Source of the DNA: Owenia fusiformis
Lineage: Eukaryota > Annelida > Polychaeta > Sabellida > Oweniidae
NCBI GenBank assembly: GCA_903813345.2
Contig: CAIIXF020000011.1
Location: 35,004,166 to 35,068,165 of the forward strand
Direction: 5' to 3'
DNA length: 64,000 nt
The notes below the pieces were generated by a model. The model was not told the DNA's origin, did no database searches, and saw only the letters and a list, made by a program, of their open reading frames with translations. Within the stretch, counting starts at the first letter, position 1. Every line of letters begins with the position of its first letter. Of the stretch, positions 20,001 to 26,000 are shown piece after piece. Made by a program: the position numbers and the translations under genes.

Positions 20001-23000
20001 GGCAAAATAAACATATAGGCTTGGCTTAAAGGTTCAGTTATTATGATCGTCCCATCAAAACTTTGGTGCAAAAAATAAAAACTTTTGAACACATTAACAT
20101 TAATTGTAACATACAGTTGCCAAACCTACAGAGGGGAGTGTACATACCTGTACTTCTACTACAACATGTTCTGGGCCTGGTCTTTGGGCTGTAAGCGTAG
20201 AGAAAATAGGGACAGGTTCTCCAATCATTGCTCTAACAGTATCTCTTATAGTATGTGTACCATGTCCAGGGGCCACAGAGCCAGGTGATTTGTCAAACAT
20301 ATTGGCGACATCTATAGTGTTAGCGACTGGAGTTACCACTATAAAATAATGTCAAAATATAATCATTAATAGACGTAAAATGATTAATTGTAATTTGTTT
20401 TCTCACAATTTCCAAAAATCTATAATTATTGCTCTTAACTCTATTCAAAGTTTGCTATCTAAAATTTCTTTCACAAAATTCCTCAAAAAGTTTAATAATT
20501 TTTTTCAATAAGGTCTCTTCTACAGTCGTTCAGGGTATATTTACACTATTATCAGGTTTTCTAGATTTGTATTTATTATTCAATTCACTCATTTTTAATT
20601 GATGGTCAAATCCTGAAGCAGTGAAATTCTTATAGTCAAAAAATGAAAACTGTCTAAAAAACTTCTGGCTTTACAGGGCAACTTAAACTAGGGGTGTAAA
20701 TTATGAGCAGGTTTAATCCTGTGGTAGTTTAAAGGCTATTAAAAACCAGAGGCATGAGAGGTTCTTGAGTTTTGATGCTCTATGGACATGGTAAGGATTC
20801 TACTTGGGGTGTCAAAATTAAAGAGTAAGGTACTTGGATGCCTTTAATTTAATTCAATGAGGGGCGGGGGCAGAAAAGGAGATCCAGAAAAAGGCACTAA
20901 CCTGTTTCAGGGTCCTCTGGTTCTTCAGGGTAGTAGAGTGGGTCACTTGCACCTTCAAAGAACTGCATGAGATGAGTCATGACTCGCACAACTTCTGCCA
21001 TTGATGGCCTCTCTGCAGGGTTCTTAAGCCAACATCTAAATGAAATTACATTTTCAGCACTCTTCCTTTCTAAAATGTTTGTTCCAAATACCAAATATAT
21101 AACCTGAATACAATGTCACTGAAATGTAACGTCTACATAAAATAAAAATTTTCATCACAATTCCCTAATAAACTATTTCTTCAAATGCAAAAAAAAGTTC
21201 ATATTAGGATTATGCAAAGGTATTTACATAGTTAAGTTACTTCAAAATTATTAAACCTTGTTACTTGGGATAATAATATACTTAATAATTATGAGATTCA
21301 TTTTTTCTAAGTGTACATTACCACAGCAATGGTAACTGGTCAACTCGTACCCAAGACAAGTCGTACCCAAGACAACTCGTACCCAAGTATATATTTTGTT
21401 TTGAATCAAGCGTTGGACTGGGAATGTGAATAGATATACCATGGTACATATTATAATTGTAACATACATGTACTGTTCAGAATAGTTTAAAGTTTGAAGA
21501 AGAATTTTTGGAAGATATTGATTTAATTTTGTGACATTTTGAACTGAGTGTCAATTCATATTGGCTATCATTTTATATTGGTCACAGATTCAGGAAGTTC
21601 GAGTGAAGAGACATATGTTTATTCCACATATTCATAATCATTTTTCAAAATATTGTATGTTTATGAGTGTTTGGAACAAGTGTCAGATCTAATGTTGTAA
21701 TTATATTTATTTATATATATGTTTGACAAAATAATGTTGAGAACAAGCGCTTCAAGCACTTCTTTTATTTAAAAATGCTTTACTGATCCATTGAGAAAAA
21801 TGTCTTCTAAATTCAAAAAAATATATGAATATTGAGGCTTATTTGATTCACATTATTACATGAAAGCATTACAGACTCAATTTTTTCCCTAATATGCACC
21901 CATAATACTGAAAATAATCTTGGTACGAGTTGTCTTGGGTACGAGTTGTCTTGGGTGTGAGTTGTCTTGGGTACCAGTTGTCTTGGGTACGAGTTGACTA
22001 GGAAGCATAGCAATGAGTCTCACTTTGGTTGTCAATCACTAATTATTTAGTTAAAACCCCCTTAAATGAGACTATTTGACATTGCTGATACATAAATCAC
22101 TTACTTTGTCATTAATGACTTTAAAGGCTCAGGGAGATTTTTTACCATAGGAGGCCTTGTACCTAAAAGACAAATAGGAGTACATCTACACTTAAATGTG
22201 TTCACCTTCAAAAATGATGTATGAGATCAATTGTCTTGACTGCTTAGGATTGACAAGCTGTACATGTAAAATCGGTTATGTTTTTTATGATTTATGCATT
22301 GTGGAATGCACAGCCTGTACTATCCTTGGAATACTTAGGCATTGAAAAGGGACTCTGATAAATCAGACTGATTAATTGTACATTTGCAATAATAATATAA
22401 TATTTGAGTATCGTATATTTGCAATAATAATATAATATTTGAGTATTGTACATTTGCAATAATAATATAATATTTGAGTTCAGTAAAACTGCACATAAAA
22501 GTGTATGTACATGGTTTTGTATGTATTATAACACATGTACAAAGCTAATCAAATAAGTTCTATACCATTGTGAACGGCCCACATGATTCTAAATGCTCCA
22601 CCCCCAACTTCATCAAAGGGCTTCCTATGAGTGTATGTATGTATTATAACACATGTTTAAAGATAATCATCAAGTTTTATACCATTGTGAACAGCCCACA
22701 TGATTCTAAGTGCTCCACCCCCAACTTCATCAAAGGGCTTCCTATGAGTGTATGTATGTATTATAACACATGTTTAAAGATAATCATCAAGTTCTATACC
22801 ATTGTGAACAGCCCACATGATTCTAAATGCTCCACCCCCAACTTCATCAAAGGGCTTCCTATGAGTGTATGTATGTATTATAACACATGTTTAAAGATAA
22901 TCATCAAGTTTTATACCATTGTGAACAGCCCACATGATTCTAAATGCTCCACCCTAACTTCATCAAAGGGCTTCCTATGAGTGTATGTATGTATTATAAC

Positions 23001-26000
23001 ACATGTTTAAAGATAATCATCAAGTTTTATACCATTGTGAACAGCCCACATGATTCTAAGTGCTCCACCCCCAACTTCATCAAAGGGCTTCCTATGAGTG
23101 TATGTATGTATTATAACACATGTTTAAAGATAATCATCAAGTTTTATACCATTGTGAACAGCCCACATGATTCTAAATGCTCCACCCCCAACTTCATCAA
23201 TGGGCTTCTTATGAGTGTATGTATGTATTATAACACATCAAATATTAAGCTCTATACATTGTGAACAGCCCACATGAATCTAAATGCTCCACCCCCAACT
23301 TCATCAATGGGCTTCCTATGAGTGTATGTTTGTATTATAACACATCAAATATTAAGCTCTATACATTGTGAACAGCCCAAATGATTCTAAATGCTCCACC
23401 CCCCAACTTCATCAAAGGGCTTCCTATGAGTGTATGTGCATGTATTATAACACATCAAATATTAAGTTCTATACCATTGTGAACAGCCCACATGATTCTA
23501 AATGCTCCACCCCCAACTTCATCAAAGGGCTTCCTATGAGTGTATGTATGTATTATAACACATGTACAAAGCTAATCAAATAAGTTCTATACCATTGTGA
23601 ACAGCCCACATGATTCTAAATGCTCCACCCCCAACTTCATCAAAGGGCTTCCTCCGAGTGATGACTTCCCATAGGATGATTCCCCAGCTGAACACGTCAC
23701 ACTTCTCACTGTAGTTGCTCCCTGTAAGAAAATAACATATTACTTAATTGAGACCAAAATACAGTTAAACCTTTATATTTAAACACCTGTCTAATCTGAA
23801 CATCTCTTGATGTTAACTTTAGGAAACTACAAATTAAGAACAGATGCCAATTTAAACAATTTTGGCCAGTCCCAGTGGCATTCAATTCAAATAGGTTTTA
23901 CTGTTCACAAATGTAAGTTTTATTAGTGAAAGTTGAAGCTGATATTTGTAGCAGTTTTAGAGACAAGACATCCATAGATTAATAGAGACACCAAGCCTAG
24001 TAAATGGTAATATGAACACTTAAACAAGGCATTAACATTCAAAATGTCACCACTATTTGTTACAGACGCCAACCACCATCACAAATAATGGAGACCATAA
24101 CAATATGTCACCACTTTTTGGTGGTGACATGAAAACAGAAGAATGCTTTGATAAGTAACTACTAAATGGTGCCTACCTTCAAAGACCTCAGGGGCCATCC
24201 AAGCTGCACTCCCTTTATTGTTGGTCATGTGTGTCTGAATGGCACAAGCTGTCCCAAAGTCACAGATCTTAAGGACTGTTCCCCCATTGATCAGCAGTAA
24301 ACTAAATTGGAAATACTAGGTTTACATGGTATTTATATATTGCCACATGAAGCAAATTAACTAAAGGTGGATCTGATTGGGCAGAAAGGGTATGAAAGTC
24401 TGTAATGTCCTTTACTCTTAAACCTCTAGAATCCAAGGTTCTAAAATCGGTTGAACCCAGAGAATTTTTCATTTTTGCCAGCTTTTGACATTTTACTAGA
24501 TACATATACAATGCTCAATTTAGCAAAATTAGACAACATCATTTCTATACATTTTATAACCATTTTTGTGTAAATAGGATGAAAATTGTTCAAATAAGAG
24601 CAATTTTAGTGAAAAATTTTGTGACAGATTATCTCGTCTCTAAGGCTTTCAAGGTCATTTCTGAGGTGACGAGAAATCTTGCCACTCTGGAGTCTGGGTA
24701 GACCGCAAGATTTTGAAGCATGTGGTCTATGGTAACAACCTGTCATCCTTGGTCATTAGGCTATCAGAAGTTCAAGCAAGTAGGCACCTGTTCCAATTAT
24801 TCAATGTCTCACTGGCATGTCTCACTATTAAATATAGACATTTAAGAATATTTTGATTTCTAATCTTCTAACCCATCAAATTGAACTTCTGTAAGTGGAA
24901 CATTTAAGAGTTTCCAAATGCATTCCACTTACTGTACAAAGGTTTTACTTGTAAATGCACTTACTTTGGAGGTTTCAAATCTCTGTGTATAAGAGGTTTA
25001 GGTTTCATTCCATGTAAATACTCTACCCCCAGAGCACACTGTAGGCACCAGCTTATGGCATGGGCTGTACTGTAGATCTGCTGCGGCTCATGACCATGTA
25101 AAACATTATATAGGGAACCACCTTCTGCATATTCCATCACGAGGCATACCTTGAAACAAGAAGCAATTTTAAGTGATTTCTCCAGCATTGAATTTGTGTG
25201 AAACATAGGATGGGGAACAACAATTGGCAATTTGAGAAATATTTAGTTTCAGACATTTCTTTTCAAAAAAGGTAAAATTAGAAGTCACTAAAAATACAAT
25301 GGAAGAAGGGAATGCAGTTGATGCAAACAGAGTCTAGAAGGCACTTAAATGAAAGCCATGTGTGGTACATGTACCGCATGTATGAACTGCCTTCATGGTA
25401 CATGCTTTATATGTATTATATTGCAAATGGCAAAAGATATCCGATAATTGAATTATTTACTTACTGGCTCACTGAGTGTACATGCTCCATACAGATGCAC
25501 AATATTTGGATGTGACACTCTAGAGAGCTGCTTCAACTCTGTCTTGAATGCTTGTTTTTCTGACTCTGTTTCTATTCTTTTCACAGCAACTTGAATGCCA
25601 TGACCTCTCCCAGGACTCCACCATATTGCACGACTGACAACGCCAAATGCACCTTTTCCTACAACCTGGAATTATGCAGATCAATAACAACTTACAGTGA
25701 AGGAATTCATTGAATTATGGTTTAAAACTGATCATAAAACCATTGTTTGGTGCTTAGATGTACCGTCCTCAACTGGTTTCAAATTTTATTTGCCACTTTC
25801 TCCCAAAGGTAATGGTAAAGACTTGAAGCTGTCTCTAATTCAACTCCCTAATTACAAAAGGCCACAGTTTTGCTGCATATTATACTATCTGAATACTATA
25901 CATTATAACTATCTGAAATATACAAAAGTTAGTACTTGTCTATTTTCTCTGTCCCGAAACGTACAAATATAGTGGAATTTGTGTCCATAATGACAAATAG

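What the first reader, a model, noticed from the sequence alone, without database searches (positions are those of the whole stretch)
22566..23651. TAK1 kinase exon fragment with its splice donor amplified nine times in the next intron
The last 59 nt of kinase exon 5, with the GT donor, is repeated in tandem nine times downstream of the genuine exon. Each copy keeps the coding text and donor. Where the true exon reads CACTCGGAG the copies read CACTCATAG, giving an AG directly before the exon fragment, so each copy looks like a possible 59-nt mini-exon or decoy donor. Inclusion of one copy would shift the frame inside the kinase domain. This could create tunable non-productive splicing of TAK1, or be neutral.
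Basis: partly seen in the sequence, partly recalled or inferred. Interest (0 to 1): 0.75.

Follow-up and report, generated by a model that had tools for sequence, protein, structure and literature searches.

The report
Repeated exon edge inside kinase intron
In an unidentified animal's TAK1 kinase gene, the end of one exon and the start of the next intron have been copied nine more times in a row inside that intron; this looks like an ordinary repeat array that carries splice-like sites along, with no clear sign in the sequence of a special function.

Summary
On the minus strand, the last 59 nt of coding exon 5 (129 nt) of a TAK1/MAP3K7-type kinase, with its GT, recurs nine times in intron 5 within an array of 10.0 copies of ~117 bp at 22518-23660. 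Shuffles give nothing like it.

Corrections: the AG before each fragment is not new; the genuine exon already has AG there (CACTCGGAG). 8 of 9 copies keep AG at that exact edge, 7 of 9 keep ATG|GT, 7 of 9 are 59 nt long.

Best explanation: a minisatellite seeded by tandem duplication across an exon/intron border, removed with intron 5, largely neutral. Event counts show no significant constraint on exon-derived text (9 versus 13 minimum events, p=0.23; 5 of 6 substitutions change the residue), though raw divergence is lower there. If used, copies would give premature stops (30 of 30 products modelled). Human parallels: the CBS 31-bp and ABCA7 25-bp VNTRs.

Odd point: the duplicated donor (ATG|GTATAG) is the weakest of 11 in the gene by a recalled matrix. 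No RNA data or relatives could be examined.

The parts
23593..23721 (-). genuine TAK1 coding exon 5 (129 nt, phase 1 in, phase 1 out), acceptor TTTTCTTACAG, donor ATG|GTATAG
   Evidence: hand-made exon model and translation; protein match to human TAK1 structures; kinase Pfam
22518..23660 (-). tandem array, 10.0 copies of ~117 bp, including the genuine exon edge as first copy
   Evidence: TRF, the repeat finder, alignment
23475..23533 (-). copy c1, exon-like 59 nt, identical to genuine exon end and donor 9-mer
23365..23423 (-). copy c2: G insertion in the G run, G>T, lost G before GT (59 nt because +1 and -1 cancel)
23258..23315 (-). copy c3: 58 nt, two substitutions, lost G before GT
23150..23208 (-). 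copy c4: AG shifted by one base (CATAAG), one substitution
23033..23091 (-). copy c5: one substitution
22917..22974 (-). copy c6: 58 nt, deletion and substitution in the G run
22800..22858 (-). copy c7: exon-like 59 nt identical to the genuine exon end and donor 9-mer
22683..22741 (-). copy c8: one substitution
22566..22624 (-). copy c9, last copy: one synonymous substitution; the intron text after it matches that after the genuine exon
22163..23592 (-). intron 5 (1430 nt), which holds the nine copies
22105..22162 (-). coding exon 6 (58 nt); modelled inclusion of one copy puts a stop here for 8 of 9 copies (7 at offset 18, c3 at offset 31) and inside the copy for c6

Best explanation
It is an intronic minisatellite born at an exon/intron border. 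A segment with the last ~68 nt of TAK1 exon 5 and the first ~50 nt of intron 5 was tandemly duplicated, with the junction in a short word shared by the two ends (CACT). The unit then multiplied by unequal exchange or slippage, including blocks of several units. The donor GT came along because it lies in the unit, and the AG at the fragment's edge is part of an arginine codon of the exon. The array is normally removed with intron 5 and is largely neutral. At most it is a low-level source of missplicing, most simply by use of a copy's donor to lengthen exon 5, which would give non-productive mRNA. Shown: structure, copy anatomy, reading-frame consequences in the model. Inferred: the duplication history, removal with the intron, neutrality.
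For: Tandem structure of ten units with the genuine exon edge as first unit. First and last unit share the same intron text up to ATACATACA while inner units form two variant groups, c1-c3 and c4-c8, as expected of a seed duplication followed by inner growth. The stretches 22602-22888 and 22952-23238 are 99% alike over 287 nt, three units apart, a multi-unit duplication. CACT lies both in the exon at the break and in the intron just past the last unit (TACATACACT). Minimum mutation events are 9 in 59 exon-derived nt against 13 in 50 intron-derived nt, Fisher p=0.23, or 9 against 8 if one cluster is taken as one event, p=1.0 (events coded by hand). 5 of 6 substitutions in exon-derived text change the TAK1 residue; 138 of 174 possible single changes (79%) would. 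No notable RNA fold (one unit, z=0.86), no Rfam match in the window at gathering scores. TRF lists other arrays of five or more copies in the window at 280-789, 13416-13855, 18369-19116 and 21918-21996, so arrays are common here.
Against: Raw pairwise divergence among the nine copies is lower in the exon-derived part (0.029) than in the intron-derived part (0.103). Changes shared by a whole variant group are 8 intron and 0 exon, against 5 intron and 9 exon for the others (p=0.0055; 0.08 if one cluster counts once), which could mean past constraint or conversion by the genuine exon. The duplicated donor is the weakest of 11 in the gene by a recalled matrix, so competition by copies with the same 9-mer (c1, c7, c9) is plausible. 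No RNA evidence for or against.
Confidence: 0.78

Rival explanations
1. Poison-splicing array: copies serve as alternative donors or 59-nt mini-exons whose use gives premature stops and so tunes TAK1 level.
For: 9 of 9 single inclusions, 3 of 3 multi-copy inclusions tried, 9 of 9 exon-5 extensions to a copy donor and 9 of 9 exon-4-to-copy products contain a stop; the genuine donor is weak and identical in 9-mer to three copies; the ABCA7 VNTR does give single-unit retention (PMC5954066 passages); exon-derived text has lower raw divergence.
Against: Stops are expected from frameshifts and intron text. Middling acceptor context and 49-59 nt gaps; two copies weakened at the donor, one with its AG shifted; event counts show no significant constraint.
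Confidence: 0.1
2. The array helps the weak exon 5 donor, or competes with it, by presenting many weak U1-binding sites close together.
For: Exon 5 donor ATG|GTATAG scores 2.89 where the next lowest of 11 scores 4.62, and it alone of 11 lacks G at +5.
Against: The matrix is recalled and not trained on this species; by it other GTs in intron 5 outscore the genuine donor (AAG|GTGAAC at 22205, 7.04; CAT|GTGGGC in 8 of 9 copies, 4.62), so it is a rough guide; 6 of 9 copies have an even weaker 9-mer at the copied donor.
Confidence: 0.05
3. Assembly artefact: the array or its copy number was made in assembly.
For: Tandem arrays are prone to such errors (general knowledge); no reads could be checked.
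Against: Copies differ from each other by substitutions and indels in two clear groups, unlike a stuttered assembly. Exact copy number stays open.
Confidence: 0.05

Closest known systems
Human CBS 31-bp VNTR, c.1444_1467+7(16_21)
   Same: Tandem unit spans an exon end and the start of the next intron with the donor: read from its name, 24 coding nt plus 7 intron nt, 16-21 copies (PMC2630376, passages seen). That its extra donors are sometimes used is recalled from Lievers et al. 2001, which is not held.
   Different: Much shorter unit; here ~68 coding plus ~40-50 intron nt and nine extra copies, in a kinase gene of an unidentified animal.
Human ABCA7 intron 18 VNTR (25 bp)
   Same: The first two bases of the VNTR are the exon's own donor GT, and retention of one unit by a cryptic donor in the intron gives a frameshift (PMC5954066, passages seen).
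   Different: Unit starts at the GT, without coding text; 25 bp, 23.7 units in the human reference. RNA use was shown there, not here. In that paper unit retention did not change with VNTR length, while skipping of the next exon did.
Potato RdRp tandem duplication over an intron-exon border; CBS 844ins68
   Same: Potato: tandem duplication over an intron-exon border that carried ready splice signals (PMC4974935, abstract seen). CBS 844ins68: an insertion skipped by alternative splicing (title in a reference list); that it duplicates an exon border is recalled.
   Different: Potato is on the acceptor side and gave a new intron; neither is a long array.

Membership tests
Minisatellite / VNTR | head-to-tail copies of a unit of tens of bp or more, imperfect | tested here: met
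   10.0 copies of 117 bp, 93% matches, 2% indels
Minisatellite / VNTR | copy number varies between individuals | not testable with these tools
   one sequence only; no genome held
Exon-border VNTR of the CBS kind | unit includes coding exon end and its donor | tested here: met
   68 nt of exon 5 plus GTATA in 9 of 9 copies, 7 of 9 with the G before GT
Exon-border VNTR of the CBS kind | extra donors are used in RNA | not testable with these tools
   no transcript data
Poison exon | inclusion gives a premature stop | tested here: met
   9 of 9 single inclusions in the model; c4 was modelled from the common edge although its AG is shifted by one base
Poison exon | usable acceptor and donor | tested here: inconclusive
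   acceptor context 64th or 78th percentile (8 copies with AG), donor 73rd-83rd percentile of window dinucleotides by recalled matrices; branch points not tested
Poison exon | conservation of the element | not testable with these tools
   no related animal genome available; 0 exact matches in the viral and prokaryote collections, which is uninformative
Tandem exon duplication | whole exon with its own acceptor is duplicated | tested here: not met
   only the last 68 of 129 nt recur; homology starts inside the exon

The most novel reading that the evidence does not exclude
The array is a copy-number-tunable poison-splicing rheostat: exon 5 has an unusually weak donor, and nine downstream donor copies of similar strength divert a share of TAK1 pre-mRNA into decay, so array length sets TAK1 dose in innate immune signalling.
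Probability: 0.06. Interest if true: 0.6.

Novelty: new member of a known kind. Interest (0 to 1): 0.22.

Why it matters
As it stands it is a clear case of how a tandem array can arise at an exon border and carry ready splice signals into an intron. If copies were used, it would be a natural test of how repeat number changes the output of a central immune kinase, as asked for the human CBS and ABCA7 arrays.

Tried and rejected
Whole genome of the window: none held. Exact search for the exon text in viral and prokaryote collections: 0 matches each, expected for an animal gene. RNA structure of one unit: 156 of 200 shuffles fold at least as well. Rfam: nothing in the window at gathering scores. 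Tandem duplication of the whole exon or mutually exclusive exons: rejected, only the 3' part recurs. The idea that the change in the copies created the AG: rejected, the AG is in the genuine exon. The 29-bp array in intron 10 was considered as a second exon-border case; by TRF it ends about 27 bases inside the intron, and BLAST of exon 10 against the window finds only itself. My first automatic split into units found four of the ten because the pattern was too strict; redone. The acceptor score printed for c4 is not valid, since that position reads AA; I left c4 out of the acceptor percentiles. Event counts were coded by hand and treat events as if independent.

Literature: eight searches. Searches found no paper; one; 39 (20 listed); four; 15 (10 listed); 16 (8 listed); two. 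I opened three papers: PMC2630376 (passages), PMC5954066 (passages), PMC4974935 (abstract). The listings were seen only as titles and abstract starts; no title there concerned this array. Lievers 2001 and a paper on intron gain by duplication are not held. The organism was not identified; the words 'mollus' and 'bivalve' were guesses.

Full report
Observation. The window holds, on its minus strand, a gene whose translated exons match human TAK1 (MAP3K7): a 42-residue piece of exon 5, typed with one slip in its first residue, matches TAK1 chains at best E=3.9e-24, and a 296-residue piece matches the kinase Pfam models. The protein differs from the human one (for example EVGGGAF for EIGGPAF). 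I modelled 11 coding exons by hand with consistent phases; exon 5 is 23721-23593, exon 6 is 22162-22105, intron 5 is 1430 nt. Tandem Repeats Finder reports 10.0 copies of 117 bp at 22518-23660. Cutting at the CACTC word gives the genuine exon edge and nine copies. BLAST of the genuine 59-mer finds itself and nine further places: two identical, four with one difference, three with more; the best hit in 30 second-order Markov shuffles is 18 of 19 nt. A 21-nt piece gives 10 matches against none in 100 shuffles. So the finding is not chance.

Corrections. The genuine exon text is CACTCGGAG|GAAGCCC, which has AG at the same place as the copies' CACTCATAG|GAAGCCC. The AG is the start of an arginine codon and was inherited. 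What changed is the base before it and, above all, the upstream context, which in the copies is intron. A simple recalled acceptor score goes from -7.2 in the exon to -1.0 in 7 of the 8 copies that keep the AG (c3 -2.9), with the ten genuine acceptors from -2.1 to 7.7. The copies are not uniform: c2 and c3 have AAT|GT for ATG|GT, c4 has its AG shifted by one base, c2 and c6 have indels in the G run, and c3 and c6 give 58 nt.

How it arose. The unit joins intron text to the exon at CACT, and the intron just past the last copy contains TACATACACT, so a short shared word at the break is likely. The intron text after the genuine exon and that after the last copy are the same variant up to ATACATACA, whereas c1-c3 and c4-c8 carry two other variants. 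This fits one seed duplication and later growth from within. Two stretches of 287 nt, three units apart, are 99% alike, which points to multi-unit exchange. The order of events and the mechanism are inferred, not shown.

Does it do anything? Every hypothetical product that I built holds a premature stop: 9 of 9 with one copy included, 3 of 3 multi-copy cases tried, 9 of 9 with exon 5 extended to a copy's donor, and 9 of 9 with exon 5 replaced by a copy. That follows from frame and from stops in the intron text and does not show use; c4 was modelled from the common edge although its AG is shifted. By a matrix recalled from vertebrates, the copies' donors rank at the 73rd-83rd percentile of all GTs in the window, the genuine exon 5 donor at the 83rd and the other ten at the 92nd-99.9th. 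Exon 5 has the weakest donor of the gene, alone in lacking G at +5. The same matrix scores some unused-looking GTs in intron 5 above the genuine donor, among them CAT|GTGGGC in 8 of 9 copies and AAG|GTGAAC at 22205, so only coarse ranking should be taken from it. The copies' acceptors rank at the 64th or 78th percentile, against the 70th-99.9th for the ten genuine ones; the two ranges overlap. Donor-to-next-AG gaps are 49-59 nt, where the shortest intron in my model is 149 nt.

Selection. Pairwise divergence is lower in exon-derived than in intron-derived columns, 0.029 against 0.103, which at face value suggests constraint. Most of that comes from the two intron variants, each shared by a group. 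Counted as minimum events, coded by hand, there are 9 in 59 nt against 13 in 50 nt (p=0.23), or 9 against 8 with one cluster taken as one event (p=1.0). Of six substitutions in exon-derived text five change the residue in the TAK1 frame, near the 79% (138 of 174) expected. One result stays against plain neutrality: group-wide changes are all in the intron part (8 to 0) while the others are 5 intron and 9 exon, p=0.0055, weakening to 0.08 if one cluster counts once. Conversion by the genuine exon, or a single complex change, could explain it.

Comparison. Human CBS has a 31-bp VNTR whose name gives 24 coding plus 7 intron nucleotides per unit in 16-21 copies (PMC2630376, passages). Human ABCA7 has a 25-bp VNTR that begins with the exon 18 donor GT; retention of one unit occurs in RNA, though its level did not follow VNTR length, while skipping of the next exon did (PMC5954066, passages). 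This array is the same kind of thing in another gene and an unidentified animal, with a longer unit. I call it a new member of a known kind, largely neutral, of low to moderate interest. The missing evidence is RNA and relatives.

Noticed in passing
23587-23595 (minus strand): Exon 5 of this TAK1 gene has donor ATG|GTATAG, the only one of 11 modelled donors without G at +5 and the lowest-scoring by a recalled matrix.
   Followed up: partly
18369-19116: A 29-bp array of 25.8 copies lies near the start of TAK1 intron 10, about 27 bases from the exon 10 border; most units hold CAGGT-like text.
   Followed up: partly
21341-21387 and 21918-21996: The same 16-bp repeat occurs in opposite orientations in TAK1 intron 6 (CAACTCGTACCCAAGA and TCTTGGGTACGAGTTG).
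   Followed up: no
26674-26892: TAK1 (minus) and a gene with a GCFC-domain exon at 33266-33541 (plus; Pfam GCFC) seem to lie head to head, with about 220 bp between the proposed start codons; that the plus-strand ATG at 26892 belongs to the GCFC gene is my inference.
   Followed up: no
3855-5333: A single uninterrupted ORF of 492 aa matches calcium-activated SK potassium channels with a calmodulin-binding domain; whether it is intronless or a retrocopy was not tested.
   Followed up: no
52773-54812: A 679-aa uninterrupted minus-strand ORF with a reverse-transcriptase domain (PF00078), probably a retrotransposon.
   Followed up: no
39853-41697 and 44507-45592: Long ORFs of 614 aa (minus) and 361 aa (plus) with no Pfam match at E 0.01.
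   Followed up: no
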